The notes beneath the pieces are model-generated. The model was not told where the DNA came from and searched no databases. It saw nothing but the letters and a program-made list of their open reading frames with translations. 11,194 nucleotides of DNA from contig JAURND010000011.1 of assembly GCA_030830425.1 (NCBI GenBank), positions 1 through 11,194 of the forward strand, read 5' to 3'. The number at the start of each line of letters is the position of its first letter. Position 1 is the first letter of the stretch. The position numbers and the translations under genes were made by a program. The stretch comes from Gammaproteobacteria bacterium. GTDB lineage: Bacteria > Pseudomonadota > Gammaproteobacteria > JAURND01. Positions 876 through 10,323 of the stretch are shown here, piece by piece.

Positions 876-1107
876 AAGTGCTTCCGCCATCCTTTAAACT
901 CAACGCCACAGTTTTTGCCGCTGACAATTAAAAACACGGTTTAGGTCATACGTAAAAAAATGGGTGTCGTTCCCGTGAAGGCAAGAATCCATGCCAGTAT
1001 GGCAGTTACCTCAATAAAGGCTTCAGGATAGACAAAACTGCCCGTCTTCCTTTAAAAAGCCTAAAACAAAGTTTTTTTGAATGGCTGATTAACAGCGCGA
1101 GAAAAAT
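876..1107. other. Intergenic spacer between smc and the kinase gene
   Basis: No credible gene is visible in these 232 bp. It contains the degenerate repeat at 963-994 and small inverted repeats: TGCCA-GTA-TGGCA (992-1004), GGCAGT (1001-1006) with ACTGCC (1037-1042), and AGGCTT (1018-1023) with AAGCCT (1057-1062). No convincing Rho-independent terminator follows smc. No confident -35/-10 pair was found for the kinase; CTGACA at 921-926 has only a poor partner near 946. Confidence 0.6.
963..994 (+). repeat. Decayed copy of a dispersed 'ATTCCCGCGAAGGCGGGAATCCA'-type intergenic repeat
   Basis: The stretch GTCGTTCCCGTGAAGGCAAG followed by AATCCATG differs at only a few positions from the palindromic intergenic repeat seen in many proteobacterial genomes. 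That repeat, when translated, reads like VIPAKAGI. Here the frame from 960 reads GVVPVKARIHA, which matches that signature. Substitutions in the right arm (GG to AA) break the original stem, so this looks like an old, inactive copy. The family assignment is from memory of the consensus, not from a search. Confidence 0.55.
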
Positions 1108-2898
1108 ATGCCAAAACTTTTAGATGAAAAACATCCAAAAAATGCACAAGAGATTCTTGATGAGATAACTGCCATTGCAATGAAAAGCGCAGGCTTATTG
1201 AGGAAAGATGCAGATAACAAGGGAGCCCTTGGAAAGGGCGCATTTAGCATCGCATGCGCCTCTAAGCTTAAGCTAAGTGTCCTCACTAAAAGCGATCAGT
1301 TAACAGAAAATAAACAAGAAAATAAACAAGCATTTAAATCATTAGATTTGGTAATAGCGGTAACCACAACGAAAGAAAGTGAAAATGATCTAAAAAAAGC
1401 CAATCAACTACTCGCAGAAAAGAATATTAGATCACCCTTTTTAGATTTCAATTTTGTCATAATTGGAAAAAAAAGAATTGCCATGCAGGCATCTGGTAAT
1501 TTTTACAGCACAGTCATAGACGAAAAAAAACGATCTATTTCCTTGTCATCAGATGAATCTAAAAATATTATTGGACAATTGGTACTAGGTCTAGAAACTC
1601 TTCACAATAATCAGCTTATTCATAGAGATCTTAAACCCCATAATATATTAGTTTTTATCGATAATTCGGCGGGATCCAGAAAAATAACCGTCAAAATAAC
1701 TGATTTTGACGGTATTCAACAGGTAGATGAAAAAGGGCGCCTAAACGAAAATATCAATGCATGCAGTACCCGATCTTATAGGGCCCCTGAAATAGAAAGA
1801 TGTATGAAAGGCGGTAAATATACTTCCCAAAACTTAAACCACTTTAAAGGAGATATTTATTCGCTGGGATGTATTGTGCATGATATATGCGGCGTCATTG
1901 CTGTCAATCAAAAGGCAGATATTGAGGGGCTGGCCAACCTGCTTAAAACTACTGATGTTAATCTTCGACCTACCATAGCCGAGATCAAAAAAAATGCTTT
2001 CTTTGGAAGTGACGAAAAACAGAGAAGCTGCTTTTTCGAAAGCCTACTTGCAAGCCACAGCCAAGAGATTTATAGCGGTGATATCGCAGATGGCTACCTG
2101 ATTAAACCTCATTCCAACCCAGGCGAAGTTTTTAATATTCTGCCTGATGTAGCCTTTCAAAGGGCATATCACGCTTTTCAGAACTTAGCGTTTCAATTCA
2201 AATTTTTAAATGAAGCAGATGGCTTTTCTAAAAAAAAGACCCCTAAAGGAATAGGGAAGCTTGTTTTCATGAAAAACATAGAGATATTTCTAGAGAGCTT
2301 TCAAAACTTGTGTGCACCTTCCCCGATTAAAGATATCTATTATGCCCAGAAACAAGCAATGCTTAATTGGGTACTAGAGCAAAAAGCGCTAATTTTTGAT
2401 AAAAAATGCGTATCAGCTATCACAAAATTGACATATCACCTGTTGCTGTATGCTGTAGCACCAGAAAACACAATAAATAAAAACGCCACGATAGCTTTGG
2501 TACTCAACATGATTCGAGATAAGCAGATTGCTTATATCGGTTTTGTCTGTCTTGCGATTTTGGGTGCTATACTCTTTGCTGGCGCAGTGCCTGTTCTGCT
2601 TGCTGGCGCGGCTTCAACAAGTGCGTTGGTGGGTATGTTACATGCTGTGGGTATTCCAGTAACTGCCGCTCAGATTGCTTCAGCTATTGCTGTTGCACCC
2701 ACAAAAATTATTGCAGTGTCGGCTGTGGTTGCTTGTTTAGCCGGTTATATCGTCATCGAATCAAGCAAAGAGGCAGAGGCGATCAGCGTAGATTTGAAAG
2801 CCCCTTATTTTGCTCAAACTTTTTTCAATACTGCTGATTCAACAGTCCGTCATGATTCTGATCTGGCGGATAAAAAACAAAACGGACTAACCTGCTAA
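1108..2898 (+). CDS. Eukaryotic-type Ser/Thr protein kinase with C-terminal membrane segments; candidate secreted effector
   Basis: The protein has 596 residues. The N-terminal half is a protein kinase fold: glycine-rich loop GKGAFS (42-47); catalytic loop HRDLKPHNIL (172-181, with D174, K176, N179); metal-binding D199 in a DFD-G sequence where DFG is normal; activation-segment end RAPEIE (225-230); αF motif DIYSLGCIV (249-257); and R287 near the αH/αI end. The expected VAIK lysine position reads I-A-V-T (83-86), so the ATP-anchoring Lys is either lost or replaced by K89. Residues ~300-470 are helical and unrecognised. Residues ~474-502 and ~534-550 are hydrophobic and probably membrane-spanning, with a weakly hydrophobic stretch between. 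There is no N-terminal signal peptide. The start ATG has only a weak upstream GAGA. Kinases of this style with membrane hairpins are common Dot/Icm effectors in Legionella and Coxiella, so effector status is inferred. The stop lies 14 bp before the binding-protein gene. Confidence 0.85.
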   Translation: MPKLLDEKHPKNAQEILDEITAIAMKSAGLLRKDADNKGALGKGAFSIACASKLKLSVLTKSDQLTENKQENKQAFKSLDLVIAVTTTKESENDLKKANQLLAEKNIRSPFLDFNFVIIGKKRIAMQASGNFYSTVIDEKKRSISLSSDESKNIIGQLVLGLETLHNNQLIHRDLKPHNILVFIDNSAGSRKITVKITDFDGIQQVDEKGRLNENINACSTRSYRAPEIERCMKGGKYTSQNLNHFKGDIYSLGCIVHDICGVIAVNQKADIEGLANLLKTTDVNLRPTIAEIKKNAFFGSDEKQRSCFFESLLASHSQEIYSGDIADGYLIKPHSNPGEVFNILPDVAFQRAYHAFQNLAFQFKFLNEADGFSKKKTPKGIGKLVFMKNIEIFLESFQNLCAPSPIKDIYYAQKQAMLNWVLEQKALIFDKKCVSAITKLTYHLLLYAVAPENTINKNATIALVLNMIRDKQIAYIGFVCLAILGAILFAGAVPVLLAGAASTSALVGMLHAVGIPVTAAQIASAIAVAPTKIIAVSAVVACLAGYIVIESSKEAEAISVDLKAPYFAQTFFNTADSTVRHDSDLADKKQNGLTC

Positions 2899-2912: not shown

Positions 2913-3881
2913 ATGCTGAAAAAAATAAAAATGATCTATGGCATTATATTATCGCTACTATTTACAGTCAGCGGGGTATGTGCAGATCCCATTAAAATAG
3001 CCATTGCCAATTATGGTCCTCATCCTACCTTACAAGAAACGATACAAGGGTTGAAAGATGGCTTGACTAAAGCGGGGTATCCAGAAGGGACGGCGGTGAT
3101 CTATGATATTTCAGATGTCAATTTTGATGCCACGCTTATTCCACAAATGTTATCTAAGTTGGTGGCTGATAAACCGAGGCTAATTGTTGCGCTATCTACG
3201 CCGGTTGCTCAGGCTGCTAAATATAAAATTAAAGATATCCCGATTGTTTTTTCGGCGATTACAGATCCTGTGCAAGCAAAATTATTAAAAAATAAGTTAC
3301 AGGGAATTGACAATTTATCGGGTGCTTCAGATCAGCCCGATTTAATCGCATTTTTGCAGTTCAGCAAAACACTGTTACCGCAGGCCAAGACGATCGGATT
3401 GCTCTATTCCTCTAGCGAAGATAACGATCATGCTTTGGTAGAGATGATGGCTGCGGCGGCTAAAGCAGCAAACATGACGGTCATGGCGCTGCCGATTGAT
3501 AATCCCGAAGATATCCCATTACGTACGCAACAATTCAAAGACAAAGTCGATTTGATTTATGTAGGTACCAGTGGCCTCATACAACCTTCATTACCCGCTA
3601 TTGTTGCCGTGGCAGATTCATTAAAAATCCCGGTCTTTAGCGCAGATGAAAGCGCAGCCAAGAATGATGAAGTATTTGGCAGTTTTGCCGTGTCGTACCA
3701 TCAAGTAGGACTGAACACAGCAGATATTGTTGTGCGTATACTCAAAGGTGAAAAGCCGGGGGATATTACACCGATTTATCCGAGTTTCTCTAACCACCAA
3801 GGCCTAGTGAGTAGAAAAAAAGCGGAGCAGTTGGGTATTTTTTTGCCTTCTCGATCAAAAAATATAACGACTTCAAACTAA
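2913..3881 (+). CDS. ABC transporter substrate-binding protein, TrpX/YtrX-like (PF04392 type)
   Basis: The 322-residue protein starts with a signal peptide: basic K3, K4, K6, a hydrophobic core about 8-20, and a likely signal peptidase I site after V22-C23-A24. C23 lacks a proper lipobox, so a soluble periplasmic protein is more likely than a lipoprotein. The mature part shows the two-lobed ABC_sub_bind pattern: IKIAIANYGPHP at the N terminus, LIVALSTPVAQ, IPIVFSAITDPV, LSGASDQPD, TIGLLYSSSEDN, IPVFSADES and the C-terminal GEKPGDI region. Characterised relatives include the pneumococcal aromatic amino-acid binder TrpX. The substrate here is not determinable by reading. The start ATG at 2913 is chosen over M7 because it gives the charged n-region; only a weak AAGAAA lies upstream. 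The partner ATPase and permease follow after a 175-bp gap occupied by a structured repeat, which is unusual for such an operon. Confidence 0.88.
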   Translation: MLKKIKMIYGIILSLLFTVSGVCADPIKIAIANYGPHPTLQETIQGLKDGLTKAGYPEGTAVIYDISDVNFDATLIPQMLSKLVADKPRLIVALSTPVAQAAKYKIKDIPIVFSAITDPVQAKLLKNKLQGIDNLSGASDQPDLIAFLQFSKTLLPQAKTIGLLYSSSEDNDHALVEMMAAAAKAANMTVMALPIDNPEDIPLRTQQFKDKVDLIYVGTSGLIQPSLPAIVAVADSLKIPVFSADESAAKNDEVFGSFAVSYHQVGLNTADIVVRILKGEKPGDITPIYPSFSNHQGLVSRKKAEQLGIFLPSRSKNITTSN

Positions 3882-3891
3882 AGATTCTGCC

Positions 3892-3913
3892 TTCAAGTAC
3901 GAGCAATATATAC
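3892..3913 (+). repeat. End module of the structured repeat (copy R1)
   Basis: TTCAAGTACGAGCAATATAT plus two bases matches the module at 4039-4060 at 20 of 22 positions, in the same orientation. It also resembles 10208-10230. Its TACGAGCAATAT part is inverted relative to 3996-4007 with a single mismatch, so it could pair with that arm and enclose hairpins A and B. Confidence 0.8.
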
Positions 3914-3918
3914 GCTTT

Positions 3919-3953
3919 CTCCCTGAAAGTGAGACAAAACCAGGGGGTTTTTT
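3919..3953 (+). terminator. Possible Rho-independent terminator (hairpin A of repeat copy 1)
   Basis: A 7-bp G+C-rich stem (one G-U) with a 15-base loop is followed directly by six T residues (3948-3953). The shape fits intrinsic termination downstream of the binding-protein gene. The large loop makes it weaker than a textbook case. If active, it would lower expression of the downstream ATPase and permease relative to the binding protein. Confidence 0.45.
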
Positions 3954-3995
3954 AAGGGTGAAGTGTTTTGCTGCCCCCTTAAATTCAAATAGATG

Positions 3996-4056
3996 ATACT
4001 GCTCGTATCAAAAAAGCAGATACATTAAAATTCTCACATTCAAGTACGAGCAGTAT
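3996..4056 (+). promoter_or_regulatory. 12-bp perfect hairpin abutting the ATPase start codon
   Basis: Positions 3996-4007 and 4045-4056 are exact reverse complements with a 37-base loop, and the ATG is at 4057-4059. The only Shine-Dalgarno-like bases (GAG at 4048-4050) are inside the right arm. Folding would therefore hide the ribosome-binding region. Control of translation is inferred; the pairing itself is directly visible. Confidence 0.5.
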
Positions 4057-4060
4057 ATGC
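4039..4060 (+). repeat. End module of the structured repeat (copy R2), overlapping the ATPase start
   Basis: This is the second copy of the TTCAAGTACGAGCAGTATAT module, 147 bp after R1 in direct orientation. Its last bases form the ATG of the ATPase gene, so the repeat supplies the translation-initiation region. Confidence 0.8.
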
Positions 4061-4824
4061 TACAAATCAAAAACCTTTCTAAAACATTTGCAGGACACAG
4101 TCAGCCCACGTTGAGCAGCATCTCGCTGACTTTGCAAACGGGTGATTTTTGTATGGTGATTGGTAGCAATGGTTCTGGAAAATCCACGCTATTAAAAATA
4201 CTACTCGGCGAATATGCGGCGGATACTGGAAAAATAAGGTTAGGCGATCAAGATATTTTTAAACAACCCTTATATCAACGTGGAAAATATATCAGCGGTG
4301 TATTTCAAGATGTTGTGCGCGGTACGATTGCAGATATGACCGTATCTGAAAATTTAAGTTTAGCGTATATGCGTGGAAGAAAAGCAACATTTGGTTCATA
4401 TCGCCAATACCAACATGTATTTATGCAACACCTCTCATCGTTGCAGATGGATTTAGAAAAAAAACTGAATACACTTTGTAGAGAATTATCAGGCGGACAA
4501 CGTCAAGCCATTGCATTTACCATGGCTACTTTACATTCACCTCAATTGCTTTTATTAGATGAGCATTGTTCTGCATTAGACCCCAAGAGTTCGCAGCACA
4601 TCATGGAAAGCACGGCGCAGTTGATACAACAAAAAAATATCACCACCTTGATGGTCACTCATCATTTACCTGATGCGATCAAGCATGGCAATAGACTCAT
4701 TATGATCCACAAAGGCAACATTGTGTTTGATGTTAGCGGTACGGAAAAGAAAGCACTGACTATTACACAATTACTCCAACGATTTCATCATCATGAAGAT
4801 AGTTTATTAATGGGCGAGGGATAG
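4057..4824 (+). CDS. ABC transporter ATP-binding protein (TrpZ/YtrZ-like)
   Basis: The 255-residue cytoplasmic ATPase energises the importer made with the binding protein upstream and the permease downstream. All nucleotide-binding motifs are present: Walker A GSNGSGKST (36-44), Q-loop in GVFQD, signature LSGGQ (144-148), Walker B LLLLDE with D168/E169, D-loop SALD and H-loop H202. The length is usual for a single-domain ABC ATPase. MLQIKNLSKTF is a normal beginning for the family and fixes the ATG at 4057, even though the upstream sequence is repeat-derived with only a weak GAG as ribosome site. Its TAG ends 2 bp before the permease ATG, and the permease ribosome site lies inside this gene, so the two are almost certainly translated together. 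Confidence 0.93.
   Translation: MLQIKNLSKTFAGHSQPTLSSISLTLQTGDFCMVIGSNGSGKSTLLKILLGEYAADTGKIRLGDQDIFKQPLYQRGKYISGVFQDVVRGTIADMTVSENLSLAYMRGRKATFGSYRQYQHVFMQHLSSLQMDLEKKLNTLCRELSGGQRQAIAFTMATLHSPQLLLLDEHCSALDPKSSQHIMESTAQLIQQKNITTLMVTHHLPDAIKHGNRLIMIHKGNIVFDVSGTEKKALTITQLLQRFHHHEDSLLMGEG
4816..4820 (+). promoter_or_regulatory. Ribosome binding site of the permease gene
   Basis: GAGGG lies 6 bases before the permease ATG at 4827 and inside the last codons of the ATPase gene. It is the clearest Shine-Dalgarno sequence in this operon and supports the chosen start and translational coupling. Confidence 0.7.
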
Positions 4825-4826
4825 CG

Positions 4827-5693
4827 ATGTTGACTACCTGGATCAATTTAATACCGATAGGCATCATGCAAAGCCTGATGATTGCTTTTGTGGCATTGGG
4901 TGTGATGATTCCATTTCGATTATTAAATTTTGCCGATTTAACCTCGGAAGGCACATTCCCATTGGGCGGTTGTTTATGTGCGTTGTTATTGCTTCAAGGC
5001 ATTCACCCCATTTTAGCCATCTTTATGAGTATGTTAGCAGGTGGCTTGATAGGTACATTCACCGCCATGTTACACCTAAAATTACGCATCAATAGTTTAT
5101 TGGCAGGTATTATTGTCAGTACTATTTTATATAGCGTCAATTTAAGATTAATGGGGAAACCTAATGTGGCGCTCTTTAATCAGTCAACTATTTTTTCTTT
5201 ATTTGCCAGCACGGATACCCATAAAACAATTTTGTTATTGGTGTTAAATGCTTTGGTGTTATGCGCAATGTATGCTTTTTTACATACTGAAAAAGGATTA
5301 CGTTTTCGTGCTGTCGGCCTAAATCCACAGGTCTCAGCTCAGCAAGGGATAAATCTGACGCGATACACACTCATGGGATTAGCATTTGGTAATGCGTGCA
5401 ATAGTTTATCTGGCGCCTTGATGGTACAGATGCAAGGTTATGCAGATATTGGTATGGGGGTTGGTATTTTAATCCACGCGCTTGCAGCCCTGATGATTGG
5501 TGAAACATTAACAGGCACAACGCGTTTATGGCAGCAATTATTAGCGCCATTTGTAGGAGCTGTGGTTTATCAGCAAATTCAGGGATTGGTGATGGCTATG
5601 GGACTACAGCCCTCCGACTTTAAAATGGTGACGGGTGCGATGGTGTTGCTCACATTAGCGATCCAGTTATGGCGCGGTAAGCGTTTAGTCTAA
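4827..5693 (+). CDS. ABC transporter permease, branched-chain/TrpY-like (BPD_transp_2 type)
   Basis: The 288-residue protein is hydrophobic along most of its length, with about 8-9 probable membrane segments. It forms the inner-membrane channel of the importer with the adjacent ATPase. The N-terminal LLNFADLTSEGTFPLGG, followed by a LRINSLLAGIIVSTILYSVNLRLMGKPN block, is typical of permeases paired with PF04392 binding proteins. The cytoplasmic loop TEKGLRFRAVGLNPQVSAQQGIN matches the EAA-like ATPase-contact region (GLRxRAVGxN). No truncation is seen and the length fits the family. The gene order binding protein-ATPase-permease is kept despite the inserted repeat. The solute is unknown; aromatic amino acids are a hypothesis from characterised relatives only. 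Confidence 0.9.
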   Translation: MLTTWINLIPIGIMQSLMIAFVALGVMIPFRLLNFADLTSEGTFPLGGCLCALLLLQGIHPILAIFMSMLAGGLIGTFTAMLHLKLRINSLLAGIIVSTILYSVNLRLMGKPNVALFNQSTIFSLFASTDTHKTILLLVLNALVLCAMYAFLHTEKGLRFRAVGLNPQVSAQQGINLTRYTLMGLAFGNACNSLSGALMVQMQGYADIGMGVGILIHALAALMIGETLTGTTRLWQQLLAPFVGAVVYQQIQGLVMAMGLQPSDFKMVTGAMVLLTLAIQLWRGKRLV

Positions 5694-8788: not shown

Positions 8789-10084
8789 ATGTTGCAAAAA
8801 AAACAATCCAGCATTACCTATCATTTATATGCCACATTAGTATGTACTGTTGCCAGTTTATTTTATATTTATGAATTTACATTACGAACTATGCCCAGTG
8901 GTATGGAATCGGAATTGATGCGTGATTTTCACATATCAGCAGGAGGGCTGGGTTTTTTAGGTTCGATGTTTTATTATGGTTATACCTTAATGCAAATACC
9001 TGCTGGATTACTGATAGATCGATTTGGGACTCGTAAACTATTATGTATTTCAGTTGTCCTTTGCATATTCAGTACGGCTTTGTTTGGACACTCTCACCAT
9101 ATTTTTATTGCTAATCTTTCATTTCTATTAATTGGTTTTGCAGCGTCGACTGCTTTTGTGGGCTCCTTGGTCATCATTTCGCATTGGTTTCCGCCTAAAT
9201 ATTTTGCAATGGCTGTAGGTCTAGTGCAGTTTCTAGGCTGTATTGGTGCGATAATGGGTGTAGGTCCTATTGTTGCATTGGTCTCTCGTATTGGTTGGCA
9301 TGCAACGGTAAATTGGTTGGTGGTCATTGGGGTAGTTATATTCGCACTCATTGTTATATTTGTCAGAAATTCCCCGAAGCAACCGGTTTCGCATCAGTTA
9401 GACCCCCCCAAAAACGGAGTCATATCAGAATTTCAGCGACTATCTAACGTTTGTCGTAATCCGCAAAATTGGTGGGTTGGGCTCTATGCATTTGCGATTT
9501 GGACACCAATGGTGGTGATGGCTGGATTATGGGGATTACCCTTTTTGATGGTCAAATATAACATCAATGCTGCTGTTGCCTCCTGGGGTATTACGATACT
9601 TTGGCTAGGAGTAGCAATCGGTGGCCCTGTGGCAGGGTTAATCTCTAACCTGGCTCGCAGTCGCTGTGAACCGCTGATATTTTGTGCCGCAATGGCCCTT
9701 GTGACAGGTATTTTAACGCTCTATGTCGACTTATCTTGGAATTGGATGTGTGTCATGCTTTTCTTTTTAGGCGCATCAGCCTCAGGGCAAGCATTAAGCT
9801 TTGGGGTGATTCAAGATAATAATCATAAGCAGATTGTTGGTACAGCCATTGGTTTTAATAATATGGCTGTCGTTGTAGGCGGTATGTTTTTGTTGCCGAT
9901 GATTGGTATGATTTTAAAACATAATTGGACTGGTGCTATGCTTAACGGTGCACCGGTTTATGCTTTACATGATTATCGCCTAGGATTAATCTGTGTTCCC
10001 CTGATCAGTTTATTCGCTTTTGTGGTCGCGCGATTTTATATTAAAGAAACCCATTGTATTTTAAAATATACTCGTTCTCCCTGA
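8789..10084 (+). CDS. Major facilitator superfamily transporter
   Basis: The 431-residue inner-membrane carrier has about 12 hydrophobic segments split by a hydrophilic central loop (about residues 192-225). The loop between segments 2 and 3 carries MFS motif A, GLLIDRFGTRKLL. The sequence before it, LRTMPSGMESELMRDFHISAGGLGFLGSMFYYGYTLMQIPAG, resembles the large carrier families of Coxiella and Legionella, whose members import amino acids, nucleosides or other host metabolites. The substrate cannot be read here. The last codons (after IKETHCILK) and the TGA lie in copy 2 of the structured repeat, and the stop codon sits in the left arm of hairpin A. The natural C terminus may therefore have been replaced by repeat-encoded residues. 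The carrier is convergent with glmS. Confidence 0.92.
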   Translation: MLQKKQSSITYHLYATLVCTVASLFYIYEFTLRTMPSGMESELMRDFHISAGGLGFLGSMFYYGYTLMQIPAGLLIDRFGTRKLLCISVVLCIFSTALFGHSHHIFIANLSFLLIGFAASTAFVGSLVIISHWFPPKYFAMAVGLVQFLGCIGAIMGVGPIVALVSRIGWHATVNWLVVIGVVIFALIVIFVRNSPKQPVSHQLDPPKNGVISEFQRLSNVCRNPQNWWVGLYAFAIWTPMVVMAGLWGLPFLMVKYNINAAVASWGITILWLGVAIGGPVAGLISNLARSRCEPLIFCAAMALVTGILTLYVDLSWNWMCVMLFFLGASASGQALSFGVIQDNNHKQIVGTAIGFNNMAVVVGGMFLLPMIGMILKHNWTGAMLNGAPVYALHDYRLGLICVPLISLFAFVVARFYIKETHCILKYTRSP

Positions 10085-10111
10085 AAGTGAGACAAAACCA
10101 GGGGGATTTTT
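10077..10111 (+). terminator. Possible Rho-independent terminator of the MFS gene (hairpin A of repeat copy 2)
   Basis: The same 7-bp stem as in copy 1 is followed by ATTTTT. The MFS stop codon (10082-10084) is inside the left arm, so a translating ribosome would compete with its folding. The perfect hairpin B immediately after it may contribute. Confidence 0.4.
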
Positions 10112-10323
10112 AAGGGGGAAGTATTCTTACCCCCTTAAATTCAATAAGTTATACCGTTCTTACCCTAACAGCATTTTTTTCAGTATATGGTTTTAAAAGC
10201 CAGTACCTTCAAGTAAGAGCGGATATAGACTTTGATGACGCTAAAAAGACCGCTGTATCGGTAGAAAAGCCAGAGAATAGGGGGGGATAAAGCAATTGAT
10301 CACCCCTTAGTTAGATAGCCACC
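10085..10323. other. Intergenic region between the convergent MFS and glmS genes
   Basis: The region is mostly occupied by repeat copy 2, ending with the module at 10208-10230. The rest holds two small inverted repeats that could end glmS transcription on the minus strand: ACCG/CGGT (10249-10262), followed in minus-strand sense by CTTTTT, and a GGGGGAT/ATC-A-CCCC stem (10282-10305). Neither is convincing alone. No coding sequence is visible. Confidence 0.5.
10208..10230 (+). repeat. End module of the structured repeat (copy R3)
   Basis: TTCAAGTAAGAGCGGATATA plus three bases is a diverged third copy of the end module at 3892 and 4039 (12 of the first 14 bases match). It forms the right arm of hairpin C in copy 2. 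Confidence 0.65.

What the first reader, a model, noticed from the sequence alone, without database searches (positions are those of the whole stretch)
3906..4060. Two-copy structured element with three hairpins and covarying base pairs
The same ordered set of three hairpins occurs at 3906-4060 and 10064-10230. Hairpin A and its surroundings are identical over 31 bases. Hairpin C is diverged in sequence but still pairs: the C4047-G4005 pair is A10216-T10160 in copy 2, and A4052-T4000 is G10221-C10155. A wobble G-U (4044/4008) is a full G-C pair (10213/10163). Double changes that keep pairing suggest the fold itself has been selected or is required for propagation. This fits a MITE/REP-like mobile palindrome, or an RNA with a function. 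I know no named family with this architecture.
Basis: seen in the sequence. Interest (0 to 1): 0.75.

Follow-up and report, generated by a model that had tools for sequence, protein, structure and literature searches.

The report
High-copy modular hairpin MITE family
The two look-alike hairpin blocks are two of some 150 or more whole and partial copies of a tiny non-coding jumping element, built from interchangeable hairpin modules, that inserts at TA sites throughout one poorly known bacterial genome.

Summary
The repeat is real, and the two copies belong to a large family. In the window's own genome (864 kb, 64% complete), a covariance model hits 150 of 150 scored candidates, partial copies included; 150 is a scoring cap, so a floor. 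The right-end motif occurs 191 times (reversed control 0).

Elements run TA|TAC...GTA|TA, 146-186 bp in 64 complete copies, with one of four left modules, a GGGGG/CCCCC middle hairpin and one of two right hairpin modules. Terminal inverted repeats are imperfect. Four of 57 joined flanks match an unoccupied recipient repeat with a single TA. Of 64 copies, 61 are not contained in an ORF. Several sit head to tail sharing one TA. This is a TA-targeting MITE, most likely moved in trans by an IS630/Tc1-mariner-type transposase, which was not found in this partial genome.

That favours inherited DNA hairpins over a selected RNA. Hairpin A is weak in copy 2. No credible relative appeared in 368 other genomes of its class (8 candidates scored per genome), plasmids, phages, viral contigs or Rfam.

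The parts
3909..4057 (+). Copy 1: complete element, left module A + middle hairpin + right module type 1 (149 bp including the TA on each side)
3909..3910 (+). TA target duplication, left
   Evidence: rule deduced from aligned copies and from empty sites at other loci; no empty site is known for this copy
4056..4057 (+). TA target duplication, right; its A is the first base of the ATG of the downstream ABC ATPase ORF
3909..3941 (+).
3941..3988 (+). Middle module (AAGGGGG...CCCCCTT hairpin; this copy has one G-to-T change in the stem)
3995..4057 (+).
3881..3910 (+). Right-end remnant (type 1, positions 33-63) of another element, at whose terminal TA copy 1 is set; source of the 147-bp-spaced direct repeat
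10067..10227 (+). Copy 2: complete element, left module A + middle hairpin + right module type 2 (161 bp; a hybrid of the two lineages)
10067..10099 (+). Left module A of copy 2; it supplies the last five codons and the stop (10082-10084) of the MFS transporter ORF
10099..10144 (+). Middle hairpin of copy 2
10150..10227 (+). Right module type 2 of copy 2 (one extra base near 10223; folds less well than that of copy 1)

Best explanation
A high-copy, non-autonomous DNA element (MITE). Its ends are imperfect terminal inverted repeats that begin TAC and end GTA, and it inserts into TA dinucleotides, which are duplicated (shown by aligned copies and four empty sites). It prefers [A/C]TA[G/T] targets. 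The likely mobiliser is an IS630/Tc1-mariner-type DDE transposase acting in trans, now lost, unassembled or in the missing 36% of the genome (inferred). The terminal TATA of one copy offers a fresh target, giving head-to-tail arrays that share one TA (arrays shown; mechanism inferred). Two end lineages (A/B with right type 1; C/D with right type 2) have exchanged left modules next to the shared GAGACAAAACCAGGGGG stretch; copy 2 is such a hybrid (inferred from module associations). The hairpins belong to the ends of the element and persist mainly by common descent, not as a selected transcript (inferred). Copies can alter neighbouring genes as a side effect (inferred).
For: Copy number: 150 of 150 scored model candidates at E <= 4.1e-8, partial copies included (cap 150), and 191 right-end motifs with 0 for the reversed-pattern control. 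Ends: of 64 complete copies in the 171.5 kb sampled, 56 begin TATAC and 56 end GTATA. Inverted repeats: ungapped identity over 27 nt averages 0.64-0.77 for matched module pairs and 0.51-0.59 for hybrids, against a slid-control mean of 0.27 and maximum of 0.56 (51 copies). Because those copies were selected for their TATAC/TATA tips, I repeated it for positions 7-27 only: 0.58-0.70 matched, 0.41-0.51 hybrids, control mean 0.27 and maximum 0.48 (53 of 64 copies). TA duplication: 4 of 57 joined flanks match an unoccupied repeat copy ungapped with exactly one TA; the best is 98.8% over 81 nt. Target: 31 of 34 non-tandem copies have A/C before the TA and 29 of 34 have T/G after it (p 9e-8 and 1.4e-5). 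With a stricter exclusion of neighbouring modules, 26 of 29 and 24 of 29 (p 2e-6 and 2e-4). 61 of 64 copies are not contained in an ORF of 90 aa or more. Modularity: left class and right type are associated (26/14 versus 4/20, Fisher p 2.3e-4). A middle-hairpin variant tracks the right module (p 1.8e-4) but not the left one (p 1.0, 58 of 64 copies).
Against: No transposase of the expected kind was found in the own genome: DDE_3, NCBIfam IS630, mariner Transposase_1 (whose controls rang nowhere, so uninformative). No other genome shows the family, so no orthologous empty site could be read; three of the four empty sites rest on recipient-repeat copies that are at best 82-88% alike. Terminal repeats of hybrids are poor: over positions 7-27 they average 0.41-0.51, around the control maximum of 0.48. 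11 of 64 copies were dropped from the target count because their ends did not fit the pattern, and the background for that count is the same sample, which is rich in element ends. Some right-stem covariation exceeds shuffles, as a functional RNA would also show.
Confidence: 0.88

Rival explanations
1. A functional structured RNA (regulatory leader, sRNA or terminator family) that spread and is kept for its fold.
For: Double changes in the right stem: 25 cells against a shuffled mean of 10.0, 0 of 500 shuffles reaching it; 9 of 14 pairs, 61 cells against at most 38 in 500 shuffles. C-type left hairpin: 9 cells against at most 6. Copy 1 RNA folds better than shuffles (z -2.69). G-T cells look more common than A-C cells in the right stem (read by eye, dominated by two lineage differences).
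Against: Most right-stem double changes lie in two pairs that separate the two lineages, i.e. few events; related copies inflate the shuffle test; the number of pairs with double changes is only weakly above shuffles on A1 (4 against 2.2, 17 of 500 reach it), further pair types not at all (341 of 500), and the middle helix has none. D- and B-type left hairpins lose pairs without compensation above shuffles. No orientation bias relative to flanking genes in 37 copies with both neighbours in view. No Rfam match; no terminator-like site in 3860-4120.
Confidence: 0.07
2. REP/BIME- or IS200/IS605-like palindromes moved by a Y1 (RAYT) transposase.
For: Palindromic, mostly intergenic, high copy, mosaic.
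Against: Length 146-186 bp, TA duplication with empty sites, no Y1_Tnp in the own partial genome although that search rang in 5 of 14 control genomes.
Confidence: 0.03
3. Tandem duplication or gene conversion, rather than transposition, made most copies.
For: Several head-to-tail arrays; identical right arms in neighbouring copies at C49 and C50.
Against: 29 of 53 usable complete copies have no other module within 15 nt of either end; tandem neighbours can carry different left modules (e.g. C49, C23, C111); empty sites show single insertions. It may explain the hybrids.
Confidence: 0.02

Closest known systems
RUP of Streptococcus pneumoniae (proposed to be mobilised by IS630-Spn1)
   Same: Small, intergenic, 108 copies, target sites with TA, terminal inverted repeats (PMC2229807, passages seen)
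   Different: RUP is described as a 107-bp unit with a proposed IS partner; here 146-186 bp, mosaic, and no partner found. Sequences were not compared
BOX elements of Streptococcus pneumoniae / S. suis
   Same: Mosaic repeat of stem-loop modules; other end modules in S. suis; insertion into one another (PMC3049150, passages seen)
   Different: BOX varies chiefly by the number of tandem boxB modules; here left, middle and right modules are each replaced one for one. Sequences were not compared
Correia/NEMIS elements of Neisseria
   Same: ~107 and ~155 bp, terminal inverted repeats, TSD, TA at termini (PMC2229807, passages); >120 copies (PMC10969869, passages)
   Different: The reported IHF site was not looked for here, and promoters only by one consensus scan of 3860-4120. 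Sequences were not compared
ERIC (enterobacteria)
   Same: 127 bp, TSD, TA at termini (PMC2229807, passages)
   Different: Not described as mosaic in the passages seen. Sequences were not compared
QMITE1/QMITE2 of Coxiella burnetii
   Same: 45 and 78 MITE copies scattered in one genome, some overlapping gene ends (PMC5896051, passages seen)
   Different: Direct repeats of 7-9 bp (QMITE2) and 2-4 bp (QMITE1); together 0.93% of the genome. Sequences were not compared
REP/BIME with RAYT
   Same: Palindromic, mosaic, >100 copies (abstract starts of PMC2817692 and PMC3733652 in search listings)
   Different: REPs are 20-40 bp; here 146-186 bp with a TA duplication, and no Y1 transposase found in the partial genome

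Membership tests
MITE (prokaryotic) | Short (<500 bp) | tested here: met
   146-186 bp in 64 of 64 complete copies
MITE (prokaryotic) | No transposase of its own | tested here: met
   146-186 bp cannot hold a transposase gene; whether copies encode small peptides was not examined
MITE (prokaryotic) | Terminal inverted repeats | tested here: met
   Imperfect: over positions 7-27, 0.58-0.70 in matched module pairs against control mean 0.27, maximum 0.48; hybrids only 0.41-0.51
MITE (prokaryotic) | Target-site duplication | tested here: met
   TA; 4 of 57 joined flanks with a single-TA empty site
MITE (prokaryotic) | Many dispersed, mainly intergenic copies | tested here: met
   150 of 150 scored candidates; 61 of 64 not contained in an ORF of 90 aa or more, by a simple ORF caller
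MITE (prokaryotic) | AT-rich | not tested
   Not computed against the genome
IS630/Tc1-mariner-mobilised MITE | TA target, duplicated | tested here: met
   established for IS630-family ISY100 (PMC2170065, passages)
IS630/Tc1-mariner-mobilised MITE | CTAG-like target preference | tested here: inconclusive
   [AC]TA[GT] preferred; CTAG itself 5 of 34 against 2.9% of NTAN sites in the sample, 4 of 29 under stricter exclusion. For IS630 the CTAG preference is known here only from a title in a reference list
IS630/Tc1-mariner-mobilised MITE | Cognate IS with the same terminal repeats in the genome | tested here: inconclusive
   No DDE_3, IS630 or Transposase_1 match, but the genome is 64% complete and the last search had no ringing control
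REP/BIME-RAYT | 20-40 bp palindrome | tested here: not met
   146-186 bp elements; the GTAG/CGTC end tags were not looked for
REP/BIME-RAYT | Y1 REP-associated transposase | tested here: inconclusive
   None found in the partial genome
Known structured RNA family (Rfam 15) | Reaches a curated model score | tested here: not met
   0 matches at gathering threshold in the window; only three weak matches, all far below their gathering scores, around copy 1
BOX element | boxA/boxB/boxC sequence identity | not tested
   No BOX sequence was compared

The most novel reading that the evidence does not exclude
The family evolves by recurrent exchange of whole left-end hairpin cassettes at a conserved seam. 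Hybrids with ill-matching terminal repeats still transpose, which would mean that the transposase reads end shape (subterminal hairpins) plus a TATAC tip rather than a fixed repeat sequence.
Probability: 0.15. Interest if true: 0.65.

Novelty: new variant of a known kind. Interest (0 to 1): 0.4.

Why it matters
It documents a dense MITE expansion (at least one model match per ~6 kb) in a lineage whose only relatives among the held genomes searched were at class level. The separable end modules let one ask whether mobile-element ends can be swapped and still work. It may also explain in part why this genome assembles into 172 pieces: 26 of the 150 model matches begin within 200 bases of the first base of a contig (my count), where about 6 would be expected by chance. 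For RNA discovery it is a caution: compensatory changes between copies of a mobile palindrome need not mean a functional RNA.

Tried and rejected
Rfam search of the window and a permissive search around copy 1: nothing credible. tRNA/tmRNA: none. Structured-RNA reading: weighed with pair counts; not preferred. RNAalifold inside the Python box returned no structure for my alignments, so pairs were set by hand from single-sequence folds. Y1, IS630 and mariner transposases: none in the own partial genome (the last had no ringing control). ORFs upstream of five truncated right ends: nothing I recognised as a transposase by eye; no domain search run on them. Plasmids and phages: no match. Viral contigs: 0 for two patterns. 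Genome contigs exact 20-mer: 0 (records of the window's own genome may be left out there). Relatives: 1 of 93 genomes, the own one (at most 8 candidates scored each). Class: 2 of 369, the own genome and G059 at E 0.0045, 30.7 bits, which on reading is only a CCCCTT-rich stretch and is taken as chance; again only 8 candidates per genome were scored, so weak relatives could be missed. Naming the organism through the ETF-QO protein: the 8 loci found are at most 60% identical and from mixed lineages, so no name. Promoter/terminator scan of 3860-4120: one weak promoter-like site, 0.5 expected; no terminator. One check weakened an early figure: terminal-repeat identity was partly built in by selecting copies with TATAC/TATA tips; recomputed without the tips it is lower but still above control for matched pairs.

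Full report
What was checked. The window holds two direct copies of one block (family D1). The first hairpin is not one shared hairpin: as DNA the left part of copy 2 folds no better than shuffles (z -0.06), while copy 1 folds there with other bases (z -2.87). The middle hairpin is clear in both copies (z -3.18 and -3.52). The right stem is clear in copy 1 (z -4.20) and weaker in copy 2 (z -1.46), which has an extra base and a longer loop.

A large family. A BLAST search of the own genome with copy 1 listed 98 matching pieces, of which 46 span 98 bases or more (my count, copy 1 among them), the others 87-98% identical to it and several in head-to-tail arrays. Copy 2 listed 56 pieces, of which 43 span 100 bases or more, 80-91% identical apart from itself. 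Both searches scored only 40 candidates of 220 and 225. The right-end motif TCAAGTAMGAGCRGTATA, two mismatches allowed, occurs 191 times (89 forward, 102 reverse), with 0 for the reversed-pattern control. A covariance model built from 26 copies (A1; model R1) gave 150 matches out of 150 scored candidates, all at E <= 4.1e-8, partial copies included. That is a floor, since 1299 first-look candidates existed and the genome is 64% complete.

Anatomy. I merged the own-genome loci L001-L094 and the window into 171,520 bases, a sample chosen around copies, and mapped modules in it by BLAST. Sixty-four elements were taken as complete because they carry a left, a middle and a right module in that order and nearly whole; fragments and remnants are also present and were left out of the counts below. 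Left modules: A 29, B 11, C 14, D 10; right modules: type 1 30, type 2 34. A rarer middle hairpin replaces the second GGGGG run with a different inner palindrome but keeps the outer GGGGG/CCCCC pair; four cases matched a regular expression, and a few more are visible in the contexts printed. Fifty-six of 64 begin TATAC and 56 of 64 end GTATA. Tandem copies join as ...GTA TA TAC..., sharing one TA.

Insertion. When the element and one TA are removed, 4 of 57 joined flanks (7 of 64 copies could not be used) match, ungapped, an unoccupied copy of another repeat with a single TA: C108 against C10 at 98.8% over 81 nt, C39 at 88%, C23 at 82%, C4 at 83%. Among 53 of 64 copies whose ends fit the pattern, 34 were first classed as not next to another copy; 31 of these have A or C before the TA and 29 have T or G after it, against 47.5% and 49.4% of all NTAN sites in the sample. 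That class still held a few copies beside element remnants; with every copy that has another module within 15 nt removed, 26 of 29 and 24 of 29 remain. The left end and the reverse complement of the right end agree over 27 nt without gaps at 0.64-0.77 for A/B with type 1 and C/D with type 2, at 0.51-0.59 for the hybrids, and at a mean of 0.27 (maximum 0.56) in slid controls (51 copies). Leaving out the tips by which copies were chosen (positions 7-27 only, 53 copies), the figures are 0.58-0.70, 0.41-0.51 and 0.27 with maximum 0.48. TA duplication with terminal repeats is the mark of IS630/Tc1-mariner transposition (ISY100: PMC2170065, passages seen).

Mosaic ends. Left class and right type are linked (26/14 against 4/20, p 2.3e-4), yet 18 of 64 are hybrids, window copy 2 among them. 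In 58 of 64 copies that could be typed, a middle-hairpin variant follows the right module (14 of 30 against 1 of 28, p 1.8e-4) and, within right type 2, not the left (6 of 12 against 8 of 18, p 1.0). So the exchange most likely lies between the left module and that variant site, where GAGACAAAACCAGGGGG is conserved (copies were chosen for A1 partly by its first nine bases). Whether this is homologous recombination, gene conversion or part of transposition is not shown.

Base pairs. In 76 distinct right modules (of 91 taken) 94.5% of cells pair, against at most 51.8% when slid; 9 of 14 pairs show a double change, 61 cells against a shuffled mean of 26.3 and maximum of 38. Most of this is two pairs that separate type 1 from type 2. 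Within type 1 there are 2 such cells (shuffled maximum 3) and within type 2 there are 10 (shuffled mean 3.4, maximum 10). The dedicated counter on A1 gave 25 double-change cells against 10.0, 0 of 500, all in the right stem; but pairs with a double change were 4 against 2.2 (17 of 500 reach it), further pair types showed no excess (341 of 500), and the middle helix had no double change. Left class C: 5 pairs and 9 cells against a shuffled maximum of 6 cells; class D: 3 cells against a mean of 3.0, with slid versions reaching 9, and pairing down to 80%; class B: none (classes C and D were assigned by the 5' arm alone and hold a few doubtful fragments). The stems are real and partly compensated, but the pattern is one of a few old events plus decay.

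Gene context. With a simple ORF caller (90 aa or more), 61 of 64 copies are not contained in an ORF. Of 37 with both neighbours in view, 22 lie between tandem, 10 between divergent and 5 between convergent genes; among the 22, the element is co-oriented with the genes in 10 and opposed in 12. The other 27 were at stretch edges (24) or inside an ORF (3). Copy 1 ends on the A of the ATG of the ABC ATPase ORF (4057-4824), and its right stem pairs the GAG six bases upstream, a possible ribosome site (inferred). Copy 2 supplies the end of the MFS ORF (8789-10084). Both are plausible side effects of insertion.

Distribution. None of 92 other genomes returned as relatives matches (every one is kin only at class level). 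Among 369 class genomes only the own one matches credibly. No match in plasmids, phages or viral contigs, none in Rfam. The genome-contig scan found no exact 20-mer. These searches look for near sequence relatives and cannot exclude diverged ones.

Mechanism and verdict. Shown: high-copy, mosaic, TA-flanked elements with single-TA empty sites, mostly not in genes. Inferred: trans-mobilisation by an IS630-like enzyme, not found here; the genome is incomplete. It works like RUP, Correia, ERIC and BOX elements (passages seen), of which it shares features, but it was not compared with them by sequence. I saw no report of this family, but my literature searches were four, none by sequence, and cannot establish that it is unpublished.

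Noticed in passing
L012:~480-640 (G000:C10), L017, L056 and others: A second interspersed repeat (TTCCCTTAAAATGCTCACATATGCATATATGCTGCGCTTTTTCGGCC and flanks) that serves as an insertion target of the element; parts seen in 12 fetched loci.
   Followed up: partly
G000:C121, C8, C9, C110, C39 (fetched stretches): A third repeat family (ACAGCAATTCCCG...CTTTAAAG...CTAAAACAAAGGGTTTCTTGTGAAAG): 14 and 15 BLAST rows for two junction queries in the 171.5 kb sample; also used as insertion target.
   Followed up: partly
L018:1473-1506 and L062:745-777: Solo 33-34 bp palindromes TATACTCGT...GAGTATA made of two left ends back to back; possibly products of internal deletion.
   Followed up: no
window 1108-2898 (+): 596-aa ORF with a Ser/Thr protein kinase domain (Pfam PF00069) and, by eye, hydrophobic stretches towards its C terminus.
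   Followed up: no
window 4045-4059: Copy 1 abuts the ABC ATPase start codon between ABC transporter genes (2913-5693); its right stem would sequester a GAG six bases upstream of the ATG.
   Followed up: partly
window 955-1060: Intergenic stretch with a TTCCCG..GAAGGC-type palindrome, seen by eye, resembling other repeats in the genome.
   Followed up: no
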